From: an uncultured Verrucomicrobiales bacterium
GTDB taxonomy: Bacteria > Verrucomicrobiota > Verrucomicrobiia > Verrucomicrobiales > Akkermansiaceae
DNA: 64,000 nucleotides
Assembly (NCBI GenBank): GCA_937928735.1
Contig: CALFVF010000018.1
Coordinates: forward strand, 1 to 64,000
Reading direction: 5' to 3'
Made by a program: the position numbers and the translations under genes. Positions 16,218 through 58,202 of this stretch are shown piece by piece. The stretch's first letter is position 1. Every line of letters begins with the position of its first letter. The notes beneath the pieces were generated by a model. The model was given only the letters and a program-made list of their open reading frames with translations, did no database searches and was not told the DNA's origin.

Positions 16218-16988
16218 ATGAAAACCATAGCCATCGCGAACCAAAAAGGAGGGGTCGGAAAAACAACCACCGCTATTTCCCTCTCAGCGGCGTTAGCCAG
16301 CCTCGGTAAACGCACCTTGCTTCTCGACCTTGACCCCCAGGCCAATGCCACATCAGGAATCGGTGTCGAGCCAGATGGAGAAGGCAGCATGTACCTGCCA
16401 CTCCTTGGTTCCTCAAAGATCGAGGAAAAAATTCTACCCACTCGATTCAAGAAACTCGACATCATCCCTTCTGGCATGGACTTAGCGGGGGTCGAAATCG
16501 AACTTGCACGGCGAGATGATCACCTCACAAGGCTAAAAAAAATCATCTCCGAGATGCCTGCCAAAGAGAACTACGATTATTGCATTCTAGACACCCCACC
16601 TTCTCTAGGGGTTCTTATGACATCCTCGCTGGCGGCAGCGGATGAAGTCGTCATCCCTCTCCAATGTGAATGGTTTGGCCTCGAAGGACTCGCTAAGATC
16701 GTCCACGTGATCGAGGAAATCCGCCAGTCAGGTGCAGCTCCTGATCTCACTCTCGAAGGTATTGTTATGACCATGTTTGATGGGCGTACGAATCTCAGCC
16801 GCCAGGTGGTGGAAGAGGTGAAAAACTATTTCCCTCAGCAACTCTACAAGAACGTGGTTCCTCGCTCCATCCGCATTGGTGAAGCTCCCAGCCACGGCAA
16901 GACTATCTTTGAGCACGATCCCTCCGGGCTCGGTGCAAAAGCTTATCATAAAGTCACTCGAGAATTTCTTAGACGCCAAACGACATAA
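16218..16988 (+). CDS. ParA/Soj-family ATPase (orphan)
   Basis: This deviant-Walker ATPase of about 256 residues carries the motif KGGVGKTTTAIS at its N-terminus, then LLLDLDPQANATSGIG and ILDTPPSLG. It is the typical chromosomal Soj/ParA type without an N-terminal HTH. I chose ATG 16218 because MKTIAIANQKGG is the usual family N-terminus. An in-frame ATG at 16179 adds 13 residues and a further upstream GTG-type extension would overlap the SNF2 gene. ParA proteins position chromosomes or large complexes together with ParB. No parB follows: the next gene, 100 bp downstream, is a pseudokinase, so its partner is elsewhere or it has another cargo. Confidence 0.9.
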   Translation: MKTIAIANQKGGVGKTTTAISLSAALASLGKRTLLLDLDPQANATSGIGVEPDGEGSMYLPLLGSSKIEEKILPTRFKKLDIIPSGMDLAGVEIELARRDDHLTRLKKIISEMPAKENYDYCILDTPPSLGVLMTSSLAAADEVVIPLQCEWFGLEGLAKIVHVIEEIRQSGAAPDLTLEGIVMTMFDGRTNLSRQVVEEVKNYFPQQLYKNVVPRSIRIGEAPSHGKTIFEHDPSGLGAKAYHKVTREFLRRQTT

Positions 16989-17089
16989 CTCACCCTATTT
17001 CAGCAACTTCTTGCATTAAATCTCGTATTAACTTGCAGATTAGTGCTTCACTGATAAGCACATAGATCACCCAATAACTATCTATAATC

Positions 17090-18982
17090 ATGAGCAAGAA
17101 GCGCTACGAAATCATCCAAGCTCTCGGCGAAGGTCGCACAGGAGCAGTCTATCAAGCGGAAGATATAGTTCTCAAACGTAAAGTCGCTATGCGGCGCTTC
17201 ACCAATGCCCAGCAAAACACCAACCCTGACTCCTATCAGAGCGAATTTGAAGCTATAGCCCACAGCCTTGGAGCCCTCCAGCACCCACACCTCCTCACCC
17301 TCTATGACGCAGGCTCAGACCAAGAGGGCCCCTACATCATCACGGAGTTACTCACAGGACAGACTCTCCAAGAAAAAATGGCAGAATCTTCCTGCCTAGA
17401 GCCTTATGAGGCCTACGATCTTAGCTACCAAATGCTAGATGCTCTCTCAGCAGCTCACGATGCAGGATTCTACCACGGAGCATTACTACCAAATTCTATC
17501 ATCCTCACGCCCAGAGGCCGAGGTGGCTACCGATTTATCATGCTCGACCTAGGACTCAGCGGCTTAGCTGGTCTCCTTCAAGAAAATGGAGCTCCATTCT
17601 CAATGGCCGATCCAGCAACGATGCCACCCGAGCTCTTTATTGGTGAGCCAGTCTCTGCACAAACTGACCTCTACATGCTTGGACACCTCATTTATATGAG
17701 CCTCCTAGGAGGGCACCCATTCGCTGGTCGCTCCAGCCAAGAAGCCAAAGAACTTCACAAAGCTGGCATCTCTCATGTTTCTAGCATTAACCCAGAACTA
17801 CAAGGGCCTTTCTACGACTGGATCGCCACCCTTACACACCCAGACCCCACCCAGAGACCCGCTTCAGCAGTAGAGGCCATGCAGAGTCTGCCAGCTTCAC
17901 CCCAGCGCCCTGCGACTCCAAGTGTCACCACTACCCATGTCGGTACACCCACTACCCATAATCCACTCACCACCCAGCAGAGCGTCATACCCCAAACCAC
18001 CCTCCAAACTACACCCCAAGTTACATCCCCTATCAATGCGACTGCACACACCATCGCAGGCAGTCATCAGCCAGAGATTCCTTTCTGGAAAACCCCAAAA
18101 TACATTCTCATCGGATCTGGAGTGATTATTAGCATCCTCCTAGGTATGCTTCTCTTCTCAAGTGACCAAGAAACCACCCCCCAAAAAAACAAAACTACCC
18201 AATCAACACCTGCGGCCCAATCAGAGTCAAAATCTTCCTCCAAACAACCCACCCCTACACAGCCAGCAGTCTTTGAGAACGTCAACAATTTCTACATCCG
18301 GAAAAGCTTCTATGAGAAAGGCCGCCTCAGCAACTACGGCCACGCCTACTCCAAACCGGCCAAAACATTACAATTTCGTGATGACTTCATCGCACTCAAT
18401 CACGGTCAGCACATAAGAGGCTCAAAGAAAAGATCCCAAGAACTATTCTCCTCAGACAAACTCGCTATCGCAGCTTTCTTCTACCTCGATAATCTAGACG
18501 GACACTCACCCATCATTAGCTTCTATGATGAAACACTAACCACTCCACAAGGATTCTACATCTCTATTGAACAAGACACCTATGTGCTCTTCTTTAGTGT
18601 TGGTGGAGAAAACTACCGCATCGAACACCCCGGGGCCAAAGCACGCACCTGGACTCAAGTCGCCTTCACCTACAGTAATGGAAATCTCTATTTCTACCTC
18701 AATGGTGAACGTGTCCAACAAACCGCCACACTCCTCGCTCCACCTAAGATCCCAAGAGAAAGTGGGCTACTCATAGGAGCCCTCCAAGAAGGCAGCCACA
18801 CAGAAACTATGTCTGGAGTCATCGATATAGTGCAGCTATCATCTCATGCCTCAGATGCTCAAGTTCAAGCATGGTGGCAAACGATCGTTGAAGCGAAAAA
18901 AACAACATTAAGAGTCCCAGCTGTGCCAAAAGCCCTACCTAGTATTCCCACTATTGACATCGGAGATATTATCATCCAATAA
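17090..18982 (+). CDS. Pseudokinase with transmembrane segment and C-terminal LamG-like domain
   Basis: This 630-residue protein has a Ser/Thr-kinase fold at residues 6-265 and a Thr/Pro/Gln-rich linker. One transmembrane helix follows (about 346-364, YILIGSGVIISILLGMLLF), then a LamG/concanavalin-like domain (about 400-610, with LAIAAFFYLDN and WTQVAFTYSNGNLYFYLNG). The glycine loop GEGRTGAVYQAED is intact. The VAIK lysine is Arg (VAMR), and the catalytic loop HRDLKPEN is replaced by HGALLPNS, losing Asp, Lys and Asn. DFG reads DLG. It is therefore predicted not to phosphorylate but may still bind nucleotide. The LamG-like domain would be outside the cytoplasm. A second gene of the same design follows at 19286. 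Confidence 0.88.
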   Translation: MSKKRYEIIQALGEGRTGAVYQAEDIVLKRKVAMRRFTNAQQNTNPDSYQSEFEAIAHSLGALQHPHLLTLYDAGSDQEGPYIITELLTGQTLQEKMAESSCLEPYEAYDLSYQMLDALSAAHDAGFYHGALLPNSIILTPRGRGGYRFIMLDLGLSGLAGLLQENGAPFSMADPATMPPELFIGEPVSAQTDLYMLGHLIYMSLLGGHPFAGRSSQEAKELHKAGISHVSSINPELQGPFYDWIATLTHPDPTQRPASAVEAMQSLPASPQRPATPSVTTTHVGTPTTHNPLTTQQSVIPQTTLQTTPQVTSPINATAHTIAGSHQPEIPFWKTPKYILIGSGVIISILLGMLLFSSDQETTPQKNKTTQSTPAAQSESKSSSKQPTPTQPAVFENVNNFYIRKSFYEKGRLSNYGHAYSKPAKTLQFRDDFIALNHGQHIRGSKKRSQELFSSDKLAIAAFFYLDNLDGHSPIISFYDETLTTPQGFYISIEQDTYVLFFSVGGENYRIEHPGAKARTWTQVAFTYSNGNLYFYLNGERVQQTATLLAPPKIPRESGLLIGALQEGSHTETMSGVIDIVQLSSHASDAQVQAWWQTIVEAKKTTLRVPAVPKALPSIPTIDIGDIIIQ

Positions 18983-19285
18983 GCCGCCCAGAGCCAACCC
19001 CTCTCAAACACCCCTCTCATTTCCTATTGAATCACAGGCATCTAGGAACACCGTCTATACCCTCATAATAAAAAACCACCCACAAGAGAGTGATCGAACA
19101 ATCACCTACTAAAACAAACACCCTCCCAGCTTGCGCACTAACACATATGACATTGTTTTTGTAATATTCTTAGCAAAAGATCGTATAAGATGCTTATAGC
19201 AATAGGCGCGAGACATCTCAATAAAGCCACAAGAGCTTAATGCCACCAACCCCCTCAACATGAAAAACTCCCACCAGGCACAGTA
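18983..19285. other. Intergenic stretch between the two pseudokinase genes
   Basis: This 303-bp stretch is AT-rich toward its 3' end. I see no gene, terminator with T-run or repeat copy. TATAAGATGCTTATA near 19183 is a short palindrome. Its position suggests the second pseudokinase has its own promoter, but no strong -35/-10 pair is evident. Confidence 0.5.
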
Positions 19286-20356
19286 ATGGATAGCTTCGAC
19301 ATCATACACCTTATTGGAAAAGGTAGAACTGGCGGCGTCTATCAAGCCGCAGACATCTCCACTGGCCAAATTGTAGCCATTCGCCGTTTTTATGATGATG
19401 ACGGCAGCACAAAAGGCTTCTGCAGTGATAGCCGCTTTCTCCACGTCATTGAAGAACGCTGTAAAATTGACCACCCTAATCTCGCCAAAATTATACACGG
19501 CGACAGTGATGAAGACGGCCCCTACCTAGTCGCCGAACTCATAGCCGGAGATGATCTCCACGCTTTTCTCGACACCCACTATTACATGGAACCGTGGCAA
19601 GGCATGCAATTAGCCAAGCAGATACTCAGTGTCTTCATGCTCATTCATGAGACCGGCATCATCCATGGCAGCTTAGGGCCTTCCTCTATCATTGTTCAGC
19701 CAAATCAAGAATCAGGTCTTCGCTACGTCATTCTCGATACAGGCCTCAGTGAAATCGTCAGCACCTTGACAGATGACCCAGAAATGCTCGAAAGAAGCGC
19801 CAATATCGTTATGCAGCCTCCTGAGCTTCTGCTTCAGCAGCCAGCCACAGCACAATCCGACCTCTACATGCTCGGCCAGATCCTCTACTACATGCTAGCG
19901 GGCGCCCACCCCTTCGCGGAGCTCTCCAAAAGAAGACTACTCCTAGCACTCGAAGACGGAATGCCCTCCCTCTCCGAGCGCAGACCTGATTTAAACCCTG
20001 AGTTCACTCACTGGGTGGATCAGCTTGTTCAAACAGACCCAAGTAAACGCCCAGAATCTGCTGCCCACGCCAATAGCCTCCTCACCTCTATCGCCACAGA
20101 CCCTAGCTTCACGATTCCCTCTGTCTCCTCAGACGTGGCAGAACATGACTTCAGTGCCGCTCCAGCCAACAAAACGCCTATTCGAGCGATTCGCCCACTA
20201 CCCCCTATCACAAAGCCTGAAGACTCCACAGATGAACCAACAATCGTAGACAATAGAAACACGCAGACGAAGCATTCTCCTAGCTCCCCTACTACCTTGA
20301 TTCTTGGAGGCCTAGTACTGCTAAGCATCGCATCTATCTCGCTGTTTTTTTTCTAA
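19286..20356 (+). CDS. Pseudokinase with C-terminal tail anchor
   Basis: This 356-residue paralogue of the preceding protein has a kinase fold at about residues 4-265 and a Pro-rich linker. It ends in a hydrophobic helix (LILGGLVLLSIASISLFFF), so it is a tail-anchored membrane protein with a cytoplasmic kinase-like domain. The glycine loop GKGRTGGVYQAAD is retained. The VAIK lysine is Arg (VAIRRF), HRDLKPEN is HGSLGPSS, and DFG is DTG. The same catalytic positions are lost as in the 17090 protein, so the loss predates the duplication or was selected twice. Downstream segments typical of the kinase C-lobe (QSDLYMLGQILYYMLAGAHPF) are well kept, arguing against simple decay. Confidence 0.88.
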   Translation: MDSFDIIHLIGKGRTGGVYQAADISTGQIVAIRRFYDDDGSTKGFCSDSRFLHVIEERCKIDHPNLAKIIHGDSDEDGPYLVAELIAGDDLHAFLDTHYYMEPWQGMQLAKQILSVFMLIHETGIIHGSLGPSSIIVQPNQESGLRYVILDTGLSEIVSTLTDDPEMLERSANIVMQPPELLLQQPATAQSDLYMLGQILYYMLAGAHPFAELSKRRLLLALEDGMPSLSERRPDLNPEFTHWVDQLVQTDPSKRPESAAHANSLLTSIATDPSFTIPSVSSDVAEHDFSAAPANKTPIRAIRPLPPITKPEDSTDEPTIVDNRNTQTKHSPSSPTTLILGGLVLLSIASISLFFF

Positions 20357-20419
20357 AAGCAACCATTTCTCAGTGATCTGGCCTTGCAGGGTGAGCAAGT
20401 TCGGCTAAGTGTACACACT

Positions 20420-22519
20420 ATGCCTAATCATCCTTTTCTCGCTGATGACTTTCACATTCGCTGGTCCACGCTCACTGCACAACATATAGAAAGCGACATT
20501 GAACTCGCCCTACAACGTGCAAAAGACAATATTGCCACTATCTGTGAACAGCCAGAGGAAACCCTCAGCTACGAAAGCACATTTGAAGCCTTAGAATCTG
20601 CGAGTAAAGACCTAGAAGCAGGATGGGGCCGATTGAACCATCTCGATGCAGTTGCCGACAACGAGGCACAGCGAAGCGCCCTCAATGCCATGCTGCCTAA
20701 AGTATCTGCCTTCTACGCCTCCATCCCACTCAACTCCGCGCTCTGGGAAAAGCTCAAAGCCTACTCAAAGAAACCAGACTCAAGTCAACTCTCATCCACC
20801 AAGCAGCGCTTTATGGAAGAAACCTGCCTGGATTTTCAACAAGCCGGTGCCGACCTCGATGACACAAAGAAACTCCAGCTCAAAGACATCTCAGCCCAAC
20901 TCGCCACACTCACCCAAAAGTTCGGCGAAAATGTCCTCGACTCCACCAATGACTACGAACTCATCCTCCAAGACGCCCACCGACTAGAGGGGCTACCCGA
21001 AATGGCGGTGGAAGCAGCTCGCCAAGATGCCCTCGCCCAAGGCCACGGTAGTGATGCAGCTCCACAATGGCGCTTCACCTTACAATTCCCCTCCATGATG
21101 CCCATCATGCAGCACGCCAAAGACGAGAGCCTTCGCCGAGAAATCTGGGAAGCCAGCAACACCATTGGACACTCCCCCCAATACGACAACACAGAAATTG
21201 TCTGGGATATTCTCAAACTCAGGCATCAGAAGGCCGAGATCCTCGGCAAAGACAACTTCGCTGACCTCGTCCTTGAGCGCCGAATGGCCAAAGACTCAGC
21301 CACAGCCCTCTCCTTTGTCGAAAATCTCCACGAAAATATCTCCACACAGTATCAACAAGAAGTCTCTGAGCTACTCGACTACAGAAATTCTCAATCTTCT
21401 GAGAAAAAAAACCGCCTCGAACCATGGGAAACCTCCTACTGGGCAGAACAACGTCGAAAAGAAACCTACGATTTTGATGACGAAGAACTCCGCCCCTACT
21501 TCCAAGTCAATCGAGTCATGGCAGGCATGTTCGACTTATTCTCCGAACTGTTTTCTCTACGTATCGAGCAGCGCCAGAGCTATTGCGGAAATAACCCCGC
21601 TCCAGAACAACAAGATGCAGTCCCAACTTGGCACGAAGACACAACATTCTACGACCTCTACGATGCTAGCTCCGACCAACATCTTGGTTCTTTCTATGCC
21701 GACTGGCACCCTCGCCCCAACAAACGCGGTGGAGCCTGGATGAACTCACTTAAAACAGGTCTCCCCCCCCGCCCAGGACATCCACGGCAGCCTCACCTCG
21801 GCCTCATAGTGGGCAACATGACAAAACCCCTCGGAGACCAACCAGCACTACTCACCCACAGAGAAGTCGAAACTATTTTCCATGAATTTGGCCACCTCTT
21901 ACACCATCTACTCAGTGAAGTAGAAATAGAATCACTCGCAGGGACAAATGTCCCCTGGGACTTCGTCGAACTACCCTCCCAAATACTGGAAAACTTTTGC
22001 TGGGATCGCTCAAGTTTAGACCTCTTTGCGACACATCACCAAACTGGTGAGCCCATACCAGAAGCACTGTTTCAGAAAATGATCGCCTCACGCAACTACA
22101 TGAGTGCCACAGCCTTCATGCGCCAGCTCGCATTTAGTAAACTCGATCTCGAACTACACAGTCACCTCAACAAATACCTGCATCGTGATCTCGATGAGGC
22201 CGACACAGAAATTCTTCGCCACTATCGAGCAGAGCACACAACACCCACCCCCAGTATGAGCAGACGCTTCAGCCACCTCTTCTCCAGCCCCACAGGCTAT
22301 GCCGCAGGCTACTACTCCTACAAGTGGGCCGAAGTCCTCGATGCAGACGCCTACACACGATTCAAGCAATCAGGAATACTCCATCAAGAGACAGGCATCG
22401 CATTCCGTAGAGAAATTCTCTCCAAAGGAAACTCCAGACCTGTCCAAGAAAGCTATAGAGCCTTCATGGGAAGAGATCCCGAACTCAGCCCCCTACTAGA
22501 GCGCAGCGGCCTCACCTAA
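20420..22519 (+). CDS. M3-family oligopeptidase (oligopeptidase A/thimet type)
   Basis: This cytoplasmic zinc peptidase of about 699 residues degrades short peptides. The zinc site HEFGHLLHHLLSEVE (HExxH) lies about two-thirds along, with the third ligand Glu in the downstream helix (PSQILENFCW). LAFSKLDLELH and FSHLFSSPTGYAAGYYSYKW are characteristic C-terminal M3 segments. I place the start at ATG 20420 (MPNHPFLADDFHIRW); a TTG 12 codons earlier is in frame but lacks family support. The stop codon TAA (22517-22519) is the first triplet of an internally deleted type A repeat, so the last residues may have been changed by that insertion. Confidence 0.94.
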   Translation: MPNHPFLADDFHIRWSTLTAQHIESDIELALQRAKDNIATICEQPEETLSYESTFEALESASKDLEAGWGRLNHLDAVADNEAQRSALNAMLPKVSAFYASIPLNSALWEKLKAYSKKPDSSQLSSTKQRFMEETCLDFQQAGADLDDTKKLQLKDISAQLATLTQKFGENVLDSTNDYELILQDAHRLEGLPEMAVEAARQDALAQGHGSDAAPQWRFTLQFPSMMPIMQHAKDESLRREIWEASNTIGHSPQYDNTEIVWDILKLRHQKAEILGKDNFADLVLERRMAKDSATALSFVENLHENISTQYQQEVSELLDYRNSQSSEKKNRLEPWETSYWAEQRRKETYDFDDEELRPYFQVNRVMAGMFDLFSELFSLRIEQRQSYCGNNPAPEQQDAVPTWHEDTTFYDLYDASSDQHLGSFYADWHPRPNKRGGAWMNSLKTGLPPRPGHPRQPHLGLIVGNMTKPLGDQPALLTHREVETIFHEFGHLLHHLLSEVEIESLAGTNVPWDFVELPSQILENFCWDRSSLDLFATHHQTGEPIPEALFQKMIASRNYMSATAFMRQLAFSKLDLELHSHLNKYLHRDLDEADTEILRHYRAEHTTPTPSMSRRFSHLFSSPTGYAAGYYSYKWAEVLDADAYTRFKQSGILHQETGIAFRREILSKGNSRPVQESYRAFMGRDPELSPLLERSGLT

Positions 22520-55845: not shown

Positions 55846-56862
55846 GTGCAACGACTCTCAATAAACACCACTATTTCATCTCCACTCAGACAGCTAGTTC
55901 ACAAGGCTCTCAAAACATTGCACTATGTGTGGTTTTTAAAACTCCTTGCGGCTGCATCTGTCTCTATGGCGGAGCCTGTCGAGAATAAACCCATCACAGC
56001 ACAAGACAGAAAAAATGCCGTCGGTGACATCCGCTCACTCCCTGCTCAGCTCAAGTACAGCTTTAGCAATCAAGGGAGCTTTGAGCCCAAGCATGCACCT
56101 GAGTCTGGTGAGTGGCTCGCTGAGCACAAGGAGAAAGGTCAAACCTTTCAGCAGTATCTACGCCACCGTGCTAACCTCATCAATCGACACCAAAACACGC
56201 TCTACCTCTTACCCCTCGGTGAAATACCCGCGGAGAGGGCGCACCTCATCCCTTTCTTACAAAAAGGCCTCAGTGCCTATTTCTACCCTCTCCAAGTCCG
56301 AGTTCTCAAACCTGCCTCATTACTCAACCTCCCAGTTCCCACGAGATTCCGCTATGGCAGAACTCAACTCCATAGTGCTGAAGTCCTTCAGTGGATGCGC
56401 AAGCGACTCCCCAGAAATGCGTATGCTATGCTGGCTATCACACCCCAAGACCTCTATCCAGAGGAGAAGCAGAACTATGTCTTTGGCCAGGCATCTTACA
56501 GGCACAGGGTGGGAGTTGTTAGCCTAGCGCGCTTCTGGCCACGGCAAGCTGACTCGCCACTTCATCCAAAAACTCTTGAGCGATTCTTTAAAATCGTCAC
56601 CCACGAGACAGGTCATATGTTTGGCCTGCACCACTGCACCTACTATCAGTGTAATATGAGTGGGATTAACCACATGCAAGAGCTCGACAAGACCCCTTCT
56701 CACCTCTGCCCAGTCTGCCTGCGCAAGCTCCATCACGCCGCTCAATTTAACCCCTCCACCCGCTATCTAAAGCTACTGCATTTCTACCGAACTCATACAT
56801 TGAACGATCAATCCCACTGGACAGAGCAGCGCCTTCAGCACATTCACACCTCCGCTGAGTGA
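55846..56862 (+). CDS. Archaemetzincin-family (M54) zinc metalloprotease
   Basis: This protein of about 338 residues has a possible signal or membrane segment near the N-terminus (LKTLHYVWFLKLLAAASVSMAE). The C-terminal half carries the full archaemetzincin signature: HETGHMFGLHH followed by a CxxxxCxMx17CxxC zinc cluster (CTYYQCNM...CPVC, about residues 265-292). All zinc ligands and the Met are present, so activity is expected. Archaemetzincins are best known from Archaea and vertebrates, with unknown substrates. The start is uncertain because several upstream ATGs exist; an overlapping frame at 55767 is not supported. It is followed by a mini-kinase and PP2C genes. Confidence 0.88.
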   Translation: MQRLSINTTISSPLRQLVHKALKTLHYVWFLKLLAAASVSMAEPVENKPITAQDRKNAVGDIRSLPAQLKYSFSNQGSFEPKHAPESGEWLAEHKEKGQTFQQYLRHRANLINRHQNTLYLLPLGEIPAERAHLIPFLQKGLSAYFYPLQVRVLKPASLLNLPVPTRFRYGRTQLHSAEVLQWMRKRLPRNAYAMLAITPQDLYPEEKQNYVFGQASYRHRVGVVSLARFWPRQADSPLHPKTLERFFKIVTHETGHMFGLHHCTYYQCNMSGINHMQELDKTPSHLCPVCLRKLHHAAQFNPSTRYLKLLHFYRTHTLNDQSHWTEQRLQHIHTSAE

Positions 56863-56925
56863 GGATTTGAGAGCAGCAAGCTAGCAGGCTTTACCTTTAG
56901 ATTCACTGTGGTATAGTTCCATCAA

Positions 56926-57363
56926 ATGAAACCTTTAAAGGATGGTATTCGCTCCCTGGTTCGCATTGATTTCCAAGGCCATGTCCACAAGTACTTTCGT
57001 GGCACAGATGCGGATAAGCGCTGCCAAAAAGAAGTCCTTGTCCTGCAGACTCTCGCTCAGAGAGGCTGTGACTTCGTTCCCATTCTTATCGAGTATGATT
57101 ATGAGAAAAATTATCTATGCACCACAAACTGCGGCAGCCCTGCCCCTCATGTCAGCCGCAAAAAAGCGGACAGCCTATTTGAGATTCTCGAAGCCAAGTA
57201 CGGCATTCGGCACGATGACGCAGAGCCTAGAAATATCACCTATGATGATAAAGCTGGTAAATTCTGTGTCATTGATTTTGAACTCGCCACCATTCTCGAA
57301 GCCCCCACTAAGGTTCAGAATGAGATTCAGAATGAGCCCCCTGATGACCCACACTCAGACTAA
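56926..57363 (+). CDS. Minimal RIO/Bud32-like protein kinase
   Basis: This protein of only 145 residues has the core of a small eukaryotic-like kinase. A Lys (HKYFRG) could be the ATP-binding lysine, and the catalytic loop HDDAEPRN keeps the Asp and Asn (the HGD-x4-N form of RIO/Bud32/APH). The metal-binding segment is VIDFELA, a DFE variant of DFG. Unlike the two pseudokinases at 17-20 kb, its catalytic residues are present. It ends in an acidic tail. A PP2C phosphatase gene follows within about 30-100 bp, suggesting a kinase-phosphatase pair. Confidence 0.8.
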   Translation: MKPLKDGIRSLVRIDFQGHVHKYFRGTDADKRCQKEVLVLQTLAQRGCDFVPILIEYDYEKNYLCTTNCGSPAPHVSRKKADSLFEILEAKYGIRHDDAEPRNITYDDKAGKFCVIDFELATILEAPTKVQNEIQNEPPDDPHSD

Positions 57364-57467
57364 ATTCACCCTCTCCACCTCTTCGCACTCTGAGTGATTC
57401 ACCCACCATTCGATGGTCAGCCCGTAGTCAAGCTGGCACTAAGAAACCAGGCAACGATGATGCCTGG

Positions 57468-58202
57468 TTGATCTTTAGTGCCTCCGACACAGGGCGCCAG
57501 CGCTTAACCGAAGATGACTCGACAGCTCTTGACTCCCAGGACCTCGTTCTCGCCATTTCCGATGGCATGGGCGGCGGCCTAGCAGGAGATCTCGCCTCAC
57601 GGATGATTCTCAGCCAACTCAGCGTCCTTATTCCCAAATTCCACCTCGCTCAACAACAAGGCCTCTCCCCTGACTATAAAAAATACCTAAAGGATGCAAT
57701 CGAGCAGGTTCACGCATCCATTAATTACCACGGAGAACAAGATCCAGAGCTCGCTGGTATGGGGGCCACTCTCACACTAGTCTGGCTCACAGAGCAGAGC
57801 CTCCACTACGTCCACGTCGGCGACTCCAGACTCTACCGAAACCGTGAGGAAAACACAGAGCAAATCACTGCTGACCACACATTCGCGTGGCAGAAACACA
57901 AGCGTGGTGAACTCAGTGAATACGCCTTTCGCCAGCACCCACGCCGCTCCATTCTCTGCCAAGTTATTGGCGCGGGACATCGCTGCCTACGAGCCGACTA
58001 CGGCTCTTTCACCCTCCAAAAAGGAGATAGATTCTTACTCTGCTCCGACGGTCTCATCGATGGACTATGGCAAAAAAATATTCACGCCATACTAAATGAA
58101 AAGACGTGCTCGACAAGTCAGCTCGCAGAGTCTCTATTACTACGCGCCATCGCTAACGATGGCAGAGATGATACCACTCTCATTCTGCTTCAGGTGGAAT
58201 AG
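57468..58202 (+). CDS. PP2C-type Ser/Thr protein phosphatase
   Basis: This metal-dependent phosphatase has the motifs LAISDGMGGGLAGDLAS, GMGATLTLVWL, HVGDSRLYRNRE, ADHTFAWQ, LLCSDGLIDGLW and NDGRDDTTLILLQVE, a complete PP2C core. The first standard in-frame start is TTG 57468, but homology seems to extend upstream. The same frame reads RWSARSQAGTKKPGNDDAWL from about 57411, resembling the usual PP2C N-terminal metal-site segment. No ATG, GTG or TTG exists there: the frame is open only from 57348, so CTG 57390 or ATT 57408 may initiate. It follows the mini-kinase gene on the same strand. Confidence 0.9.
   Translation: MIFSASDTGRQRLTEDDSTALDSQDLVLAISDGMGGGLAGDLASRMILSQLSVLIPKFHLAQQQGLSPDYKKYLKDAIEQVHASINYHGEQDPELAGMGATLTLVWLTEQSLHYVHVGDSRLYRNREENTEQITADHTFAWQKHKRGELSEYAFRQHPRRSILCQVIGAGHRCLRADYGSFTLQKGDRFLLCSDGLIDGLWQKNIHAILNEKTCSTSQLAESLLLRAIANDGRDDTTLILLQVE

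What the first reader, a model, noticed from the sequence alone, without database searches (positions are those of the whole stretch)
17090..20356. Tandem membrane pseudokinases that lost the same catalytic residues
Both proteins keep an intact glycine loop and C-lobe but replace the VAIK Lys with Arg and the HRD-x4-N loop with HGALLPNS or HGSLGPSS. One has an external LamG-like domain, the other is tail-anchored. Parallel loss with retained fold argues for a conserved pseudokinase signalling module rather than decay. An active mini-kinase and a PP2C enzyme occur elsewhere in the window (56.9-58.2 kb).
Basis: partly seen in the sequence, partly recalled or inferred. Interest (0 to 1): 0.8.

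Follow-up and report, generated by a model that had tools for sequence, protein, structure and literature searches.

The report
Rubritalea family of membrane receptor-like pseudokinases
Two neighbouring bacterial genes encode membrane proteins shaped like protein kinases but without most catalytic residues; they belong to a conserved family, seen so far in three related Verrucomicrobiota genera, that appears to have lost catalysis once and been kept since, which suggests a signalling job that does not need phosphorylation.

Summary
Both ORFs encode full kinase-fold domains (Pkinase 1.7e-25, 1.7e-28) with VAIK Lys->Arg, HRD-x4-N -> HGALLPNS / HGSLGPSS and the DFG Asp kept; PK1 has an external LamG domain, PK2 a tail anchor. 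The genome belongs to a genus whose named members are mostly Rubritalea. 'Parallel loss' is not supported: with catalytic columns removed, 49 pseudokinases form one clade (100/99) apart from 43 kinases, so the loss looks single. All 12 genus genomes examined carry members; a strict class search found the family in 3 of 171 genera. Over the 49: HRD Asp 0, alpha-C Glu 0, beta3 Arg 42, Ser for Asn 48, DFG Asp 49. dN/dS is finite in 7 of 28 pairs, 0.04-0.22, all near saturation. Fourteen proteins in three genera share one external beta-sandwich, so the ancestor was probably a membrane receptor. Most likely: receptor-like scaffolds or allosteric partners whose pocket still binds something; ligand, partner and mechanism are inferred. 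The window's locus is not syntenic elsewhere, but tandem pairs recur. The 'active mini-kinase' is not supported.

The parts
17090..18982 (+). PK1: pseudokinase domain - Thr/Pro-rich linker - TM - LamG ectodomain, 630 aa
17105..17884 (+). PK1 kinase-fold domain (aa 6-265)
   Evidence: Pfam PF00069 E 1.7e-25; AF2 of aa 1-269 pLDDT 91.2
17192..17194 (+). PK1 beta3 Arg35 in place of VAIK Lys
17474..17497 (+). PK1 HGALLPNS in place of HRDLKxxN (aa 129-136)
17546..17554 (+). PK1 DLG (DFG motif, Asp153 kept)
18104..18160 (+). PK1 transmembrane helix (aa 339-357)
   Evidence: hydropathy window 2.46
18440..18853 (+). PK1 external LamG-like domain (aa 451-588)
   Evidence: PF13385 E 1.1e-15
19286..20356 (+). 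PK2: pseudokinase domain - linker - C-terminal TM anchor, 356 aa
19301..20059 (+). PK2 kinase-fold domain (aa 6-258)
   Evidence: PF00069 E 1.7e-28
19382..19384 (+). PK2 beta3 Arg33 in place of VAIK Lys
19664..19687 (+). PK2 HGSLGPSS in place of HRDLKxxN (aa 127-134)
19736..19744 (+). PK2 DTG (DFG motif, Asp kept)
20297..20353 (+). PK2 C-terminal transmembrane anchor (aa 338-356)
   Evidence: hydropathy window 2.5

Best explanation
PK1 and PK2 are two of at least five paralogues in this genome of a lineage-restricted family of receptor-like pseudokinases. SUPPORTED BY SEQUENCE AND TREES: the family is one clade beside PknB-type kinases; its members lack the alpha-C Glu, the HRD Asp and the catalytic-loop Lys, nearly all have Arg for the beta3 Lys and Ser for the Asn, and all keep the DFG Asp and APE Glu; they have duplicated and carry different ectodomains. 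INFERRED: canonical phosphotransfer was lost once and is absent. The external beta-sandwich (LamG in PK1, weakly CBM-like in many relatives) senses an envelope or environmental ligand. The cytoplasmic domain, whose pocket is kept under a new residue set, acts as a ligand-gated scaffold or allosteric partner of a genuine PknB-type kinase or another effector. PK1 keeps the positions of the PknB back-to-back dimer hot spots and so could pair with an active kinase. PK2, which has lost those positions and has no ectodomain, would be a membrane-tethered docking subunit.
For: Kinase fold: Pfam, AF2 pLDDT 91.2, Foldseek PknA/PknB. One clade: 41 pseudokinases at 100/98, 49 at 100/99 and in 100% of 200 bootstrap trees, catalytic columns left out. 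Tallies over 49: DFG Asp 49, Ser for Asn 48, beta3 Arg 42, HRD Asp 0, alpha-C Glu 0, catalytic-loop Lys 0. Purifying selection: finite w in 7 of 28 pairs, 0.041 (G004-G001) to 0.224. Architecture: 29 of the 41 members scanned have a predicted TM after the domain, 26 of them with an ectodomain over 80 aa; one ectodomain type links 14 proteins of three genera (single-linkage BLAST) and models at pLDDT 91.7 as a beta-sandwich. Dimer hot-spot positions (PknB L33, D76 = PK1 L28, D73) are L in 30 and D in 42 of 49 pseudokinases, and in 33 and 34 of 35 kinases; PK2 has T and H.
Against: No partner, ligand or phenotype is known. No recurrent neighbour encodes a kinase or obvious effector (argS, cvfB-like, Ham1, YdjM). 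The dimer positions may be conserved simply because they are common to bacterial kinases. All finite w values have dS 1.42-2.53, near saturation, and none is for PK1 or PK2 (50% and 34% identical to their nearest relatives). Pseudokinase pN is 2.3-3.3 times that of active orthologues in six matched genome pairs. 12 of the 41 scanned members lack a confident TM, so membrane reception is not the only mode. L013 keeps the beta3 Lys.
Confidence: 0.55

Rival explanations
1. The remodelled pocket (Arg, Ser, Asp, and hinge Gln in about half of the members) binds a nucleotide or other small molecule and works as a ligand-gated switch without catalysis, as reported for K->R pseudokinases such as KSR1 and EphB6.
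For: Ser136 (48 of 49) and Asp153 (49 of 49) are among the 19 of 272 columns conserved in at least 90% of 49 pseudokinases; Arg35 is at 86% and hinge Glu is replaced by Gln in 25 of 49. A drifting empty pocket would not be expected to fix one new residue. [quoted passage not shown]
Against: G-loop Gly1 and Gly2 are kept in only 28 and 30 of 49; the Lys-Glu salt bridge and the second metal ligand are gone. PK1 and PK2 keep the hinge Glu (one search lists Glu at this position in PK1; for PK2).
Confidence: 0.2
2. A non-canonical transferase (AMPylation or glutamylation, as in SelO and SidJ) that uses the conserved Arg/Ser/Asp set.
For: DFG Asp invariant and Ser nearly invariant without the HRD base; SelO and SidJ show that kinase folds without the HRD base can be enzymes (PMC12599244 section 4).
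Against: SelO and SidJ keep the pocket Lys, and SelO the Asn (Table 1); this family keeps neither as a rule. The family-specific columns outside the pocket (Phe53, Gly208, His209) have no known catalytic role, but this was not tested.
Confidence: 0.07
3. Ongoing decay: the window's two genes, PK2 in particular, are relics under relaxed selection.
For: PK2 has the fifth longest end branch (2.04), no close orthologue, and has lost the dimer-interface positions. Pseudokinase pN is 2.3-3.3 times that of active orthologues in six matched genome pairs.
Against: Open frames of 630 and 356 codons with codon-position GC like that of neighbouring genes; PK2 still matches Pkinase at 1.7e-28 and keeps all 19 columns that are at least 90% conserved in the family (PK1 and PK2 are themselves among the 49); the family is present in 12 of 12 genus genomes examined.
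Confidence: 0.1
4. Still a protein kinase with a displaced catalytic apparatus (WNK-like).
For: Fold, DFG Asp and APE region intact; WNK shows that the beta3 Lys can be replaced (review section 7).
Against: WNK keeps the HRD Asp and the Asn (recalled); here the HRD Asp and the Asn are absent in 49 of 49.
Confidence: 0.04

Closest known systems
PknB/StkP-type transmembrane Ser/Thr kinases (active)
   Same: Kinase domain - linker - TM - ectodomain; best sequence and fold matches
   Different: Of the canonical catalytic residues only the DFG Asp is kept; LamG or other beta-sandwich ectodomains instead of PASTA; NCBIfam PknB_PASTA scores 135 and 112.3 against a cut-off of 450
MviN (ActPs3) pseudokinase of M. 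tuberculosis
   Same: Membrane pseudokinase working as a recruiting scaffold (review section 8); a possible functional analogue
   Different: The review describes complete degradation of the motifs, an activation-loop deletion and bulky aromatics in the pocket; this family keeps the DFG Asp and activation segment
ActPs2 pseudokinases
   Same: Conserved beta3 Lys->Arg; TM C-terminal to the domain (section 7)
   Different: ActPs2: HRD Asp->Asn, DFG mostly deleted, large insertions, Actinobacteria. Here Asp->Ala/Ser in most, Asn->Ser, DFG Asp kept, no such insertions in PK1 or PK2
DYD kinases and pseudokinases
   Same: beta3 Arg, no alpha-C Glu, membrane-bound (section 12)
   Different: DYD members use a catalytic-loop Asn and a second Asp in the DYD motif; here the Asn is Ser and the third DFG residue is Gly (48 of 49)
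CP1 pseudokinases
   Same: A Leptospira CP1 loop listed as Hnqigpss resembles PK2's HGSLGPSS (Table 1)
   Different: CP1 proteins lack TM and are linked to a COG3899 ATPase (section 10); neither is true here

Membership tests
Hanks-type protein kinase fold (PF00069) | Profile match over the curated cut-off and two-lobed kinase fold | tested here: met
   90.3 and 100.2 bits against 31.7; AF2/Foldseek for PK1
Catalytically competent Hanks kinase | VAIK Lys, alpha-C Glu, HRD Asp, Asn, DFG Asp | tested here: not met
   Only the DFG Asp is kept in PK1 and PK2
Pseudokinase | At least one of beta3 Lys, HRD Asp, DFG Asp missing (definition in the introduction of PMC12599244, passage) | tested here: met
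   Two of three missing in both
Pseudokinase | No phosphotransfer activity in vitro | not testable with these tools
   needs purified protein
CP1 pseudokinases | COG3899 ATPase domain, no TM | tested here: not met
   Pfam finds only kinase profiles and, in PK1, LamG; TM predicted
ActPs2 | HRD Asp->Asn and DFG deletion | tested here: not met
   Asp->Ala/Ser; DLG/DTG present
DYD | DYD motif and catalytic-loop Asn | tested here: not met
   DLG/DTG; Asn->Ser
ActPs3 (MviN) | DFG motif lost, activation-loop deletion | tested here: not met
   DFG Asp and APE region kept
One of the 42 bacterial STK families of the atlas cited in PMC12599244 | Family constraint pattern | not tested
   The atlas paper was not found in the held library
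The Rubritalea pseudokinase clade described here | Ser at Asn, DFG Asp kept, HRD Asp and alpha-C Glu lost, Arg at beta3 Lys in most; falls in the clade without those columns | tested here: met

The most novel reading that the evidence does not exclude
An entire receptor family in which the kinase pocket was re-tooled once into an Arg/Ser/Asp site, with the Ser and Asp among the most conserved columns of the whole fold (19 of 272): a pocket that binds a nucleotide or another ligand to gate signalling by non-phosphorylating receptors, or even catalyses a different transfer, in an expanded set (at least 5 in this genome, at least 8 in a 2.0 Mb, 82% complete relative).
Probability: 0.25. Interest if true: 0.75.

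Novelty: new variant of a known kind. Interest (0 to 1): 0.5.

Why it matters
Bacterial pseudokinases are little studied: the 2025 review read here treats seven families, and a find over its main text gives 0 occurrences of 'verrucomicrob'. This clade is largely receptor-like, seen only in three genera in the searches made, expanded, and conserved at precise pocket positions, with a named strain (Rubritalea profundi SAORIC-165, L051/L061) that carries members. That makes a testable system for how a receptor kinase family keeps signalling after losing phosphotransfer. In this genome 7 of 16 kinase-like ORFs lack one or more catalytic residues.

Tried and rejected
Parallel loss: not supported by the trees. 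Conserved operon with ParA or the M3 peptidase: tblastn of 15 window ORFs (hits of PK1 and PK2 set aside, so 13 neighbours) against 23 related loci gave no neighbour hit at E<=1e-10; some of these loci end at a contig edge. Neighbours as partners: argS lies upstream in four loci (Pfam checked in two), a cvfB-like gene near six soluble members, YdjM near three, Ham1 near two; pheT and a DAHP synthase once each. A TPR-like protein (below Pfam's cut-offs) lies upstream in three soluble-group loci; not followed. PK1+PK2 as sisters: neither shown nor rejected (AU p 0.283; own-genome four 0.165); PK2 joins L013 at 82/87 but is placed apart. Promoter/terminator scan of 16900-20500: 5 promoter-like (shuffles 3.4) and 5 terminator-like (2.7), so co-transcription is undecided. 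TGP[LMVI] in linkers: 11 in 9 of 29, shuffle mean 0.36, maximum 4 of 2000; the motif was chosen after looking, rows are related, and PK1 and PK2 lack it, so it is only a lead. CP1 membership: considered for a look-alike loop, rejected on TM and fused domain. Ectodomain type c as a CBM: 18 PDB matches at E<=0.001, 10 of them CBMs by title, the others glycosidases, an astacin zymogen and toxin components; TM-scores (query) 0.22-0.40, so the likeness is weak. Literature on Rubritalea, Verrucomicrobiota or Planctomycetes pseudokinases: nothing relevant in the titles and abstract starts listed.

Limits: searches scored at most 17, 8 and 6 candidates per genome; the class search used a strict cut-off (1e-72), so divergent members elsewhere could be missed. 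Many genomes are incomplete. The 49 rows are those I fetched and checked; the partial domain L072 5971-7722 and L016 were left out of trees and tallies. The 43 kinases are 32 chosen by hand from the 123 domains plus 11. PK1 itself is missing from the table (removed as a duplicate of a fragment) and was added by hand to the trees. L087, L091 and L013 score below the gap and were labelled pseudokinase by residues; L008 (HRD kept, NFS) was labelled kinase. L139_m4098 was dropped before as a copy of L102. One search warns of long branches (L155 with L156 joined) and odd composition of L013.
Full report
CHECK. The two ORFs are where the finding says and are intact. Pfam gives Pkinase at 1.7e-25 and 1.7e-28 and, for PK1, Laminin_G_3 at 1.1e-15. 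Catalytic positions read off an alignment with the genome's own active kinases show Lys->Arg, alpha-C Glu lost, HRD Asp->Ala/Ser, Asn->Ser, with the DFG Asp, the PE of APE and GxGxxG kept. Each protein has a hydrophobic helix after the domain, terminal in PK2. AlphaFold2 on PK1's domain with 28 family sequences gives pLDDT 91.2 and pTM 0.89; nine of Foldseek's first ten PDB hits are PknA/PknB and one is S. aureus Stk1, TM-score (query) 0.77-0.84, 24-25% identity.

WHERE. The genome search gives 17 Pkinase-profile places in the 2.65 Mb genome, 15 over the cut-off. L017 looks APH-like by eye; of the other 16, 7 lack one or more catalytic residues (PK1, PK2, L011, L013, L015, L008 in the motif tables; L016 by eye). 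L011 is a third close paralogue (44% to PK1). Of 7 named loci in genome contigs, 4 are titled uncultured Rubritalea, one Rubritalea profundi, one Verrucomicrobiales and one Akkermansiaceae; contig lengths tie all seven to genomes of the window's genus group g1, so I take the genus to be Rubritalea.

FAMILY. Matches were fetched from the genus and beyond and aligned. In one search (123 domains) every protein scoring 243 bits or more with the family model lacks the catalytic residues; the next score is 233 and below it the rows are canonical except L013, L087, L091, the partial L072_p5970 and the partly degenerate L008. The checked family has 49 members: 36 in the 12 genus genomes (each has at least one), 11 in genus g12 and 2 in genus g14. 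Tallies over 49: DFG Asp 49; Asn->Ser 48; beta3 Arg 42 (Lys in one, L013); HRD His 47, Gly after it 35; HRD Asp 0; alpha-C Glu 0; G-loop Gly1 28, Gly2 30, Gly3 45; APE Glu 49. Of the 43 kinases in the same call: Lys 43, Glu 43, HRD Asp 43, Asn 42, DFG Asp 42.

DISTRIBUTION. Order search: 146 of 288 genomes match at E<=1e-55, but this cut-off also admits canonical kinases; the loci I fetched outside g1, g12 and g14 all show canonical residues. Class search at E<=1e-72: 8 of 384 genomes, 3 of 171 genera, namely g1, g12 and g14, all in one family group (f1).

ONE LOSS, NOT TWO. Trees were built with the VAIK, alpha-C, HRD loop and DFG columns left out. With 73 rows, 41 pseudokinases form one side of a branch at 100/98; with 92 rows, 49 do so at 100/99, in 100% of 200 bootstrap trees. 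Both used a site-heterogeneous model, but several rows are long and long branches may attract. Columns outside those dropped agree with one origin: Phe53 in alpha-C (86%, 0 of 35 kinases), His209 (98% vs 14%), and ADP in the P+1 loop (A 23, D 37, P 36 of 49) where kinases have GSI. L013's Lys is either retained or regained. Whether PK1 and PK2 are each other's closest relatives is open.

SELECTION. Eight pseudokinase domains were compared pairwise (28 pairs): w is finite in 7, from 0.041 (G004-G001, dS 1.58) to 0.224, the tandem paralogues of G009 giving 0.211; all have dS 1.42-2.53, the other 21 are saturated. Six active orthologues (15 pairs) give w 0.028, 0.028 and 0.060 in the three usable pairs. 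pN of the pseudokinases is 2.3-3.3 times that of the active orthologues in the six pairs among G002, G004, G006 and G011. So the domain is constrained, less tightly than in the active kinase. For PK1 and PK2 only saturated comparisons exist (pN/pS 0.38-0.63); both keep all 19 columns that are at least 90% conserved in the family.

ARCHITECTURE. Of 41 members scanned, 29 have a predicted TM after a 46-200 residue linker; 26 of these have an ectodomain of 207-290 residues; PK2, L063_m8064 and L062 have 0, 32 and 51 residues outside; 12 have no confident TM, mostly ~300-aa soluble forms. Six of the soluble forms have a cvfB-like gene nearby, directly downstream in five and one gene away in L069 (Pfam checked in two). 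Ectodomains fall into six BLAST clusters: PK1, L011 and L013 alone, L087+L091, an argS-linked type (7) and a type linking 14 proteins of g1, g12 and g14. Pfam calls LamG in PK1, L013 and L091. The 14-protein type has no Pfam match over cut-off in the five members tried and models as a beta-sandwich, pLDDT 91.7; of 18 PDB matches at E<=0.001, 10 are carbohydrate-binding modules by title, TM-score at most 0.40. Because it spans three genera, the ancestral pseudokinase was probably already a membrane receptor.

TANDEM. Co-directional tandem pairs: window (PK1 then PK2), L063 (argS - 650 aa receptor - 416 aa tail-anchored; sisters at 100/99), L139 (two receptors), L072 (soluble, then a TM protein with a partial domain and an ectodomain). 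The two receptor-plus-anchor pairs share no neighbours within the stretch held. This may be recurrent duplication only.

MECHANISM. Loss of the HRD base, Asn and Lys makes canonical phosphotransfer very unlikely (established kinase chemistry). The fixed Ser and Asp, with Arg in 86%, argue that the pocket still matters. Positions of PknB's L33 and D76, which the mutant structures and the review mark as dimer contacts (mapping), are kept in PK1 and most members but are Thr and His in PK2. I therefore favour a ligand-gated scaffold or allosteric partner, with MviN/FhaA (scaffold; review section 8) as the nearest studied analogue. The active partner is inferred.

LITERATURE. PMC12599244: outline and abstract, a find over the main text, sections 4 (part 1 of 2), 7, 8, 10, 12 and 14. 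Its families that I compared differ from this clade on tested features (membership table); I did not read the ActPs1, GLW (beyond its short paragraph) and DLHK sections in full. The atlas it cites was not in the library. All other papers were seen only as search listings.

Noticed in passing
window 56917-57363: Short ORF with HDDAEPRN..DFE; only a sub-threshold APH-like match, so probably not a Hanks-type mini-kinase; the PP2C frame (57348-58202) overlaps its end.
   Followed up: partly
L008 (G000:C29), L016 (G000:C1): Two more degenerate kinase-fold proteins in this genome: L008 has HRDIEPAH and NFS and sits among the active kinases in the trees; L016 joins a degenerate, sub-cut-off kinase match to an FGE-sulfatase domain.
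   Followed up: partly
L062, L070, L073, L079, L155, L156, L157, L158 (G003): One 2.0 Mb, 82% complete relative carries at least eight pseudokinases, several very divergent: a lineage-specific expansion.
   Followed up: partly
L066, L068, L069, L074, L076, L077: Soluble ~300-aa pseudokinases have a cvfB-like (S1/winged-helix) gene directly downstream in five genomes and one gene away in a sixth; three also have a TPR-like protein upstream.
   Followed up: no
L009 (G000:C10): By eye, a PP2C-like phosphatase fused to an active-looking kinase domain and a C-terminal hydrophobic stretch; only the kinase part was matched by a profile.
   Followed up: no
linkers of L055, L056, L057, L058, L060, L064, L071, L091, L105: Recurrent TGP[LMVI] motif in the linker before the TM helix (11 in 9 of 29; post hoc), a possible docking or phosphothreonine site.
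   Followed up: partly
window 55846-56862: Archaemetzincin-like metalloprotease (PF07998 E 3e-15).
   Followed up: no
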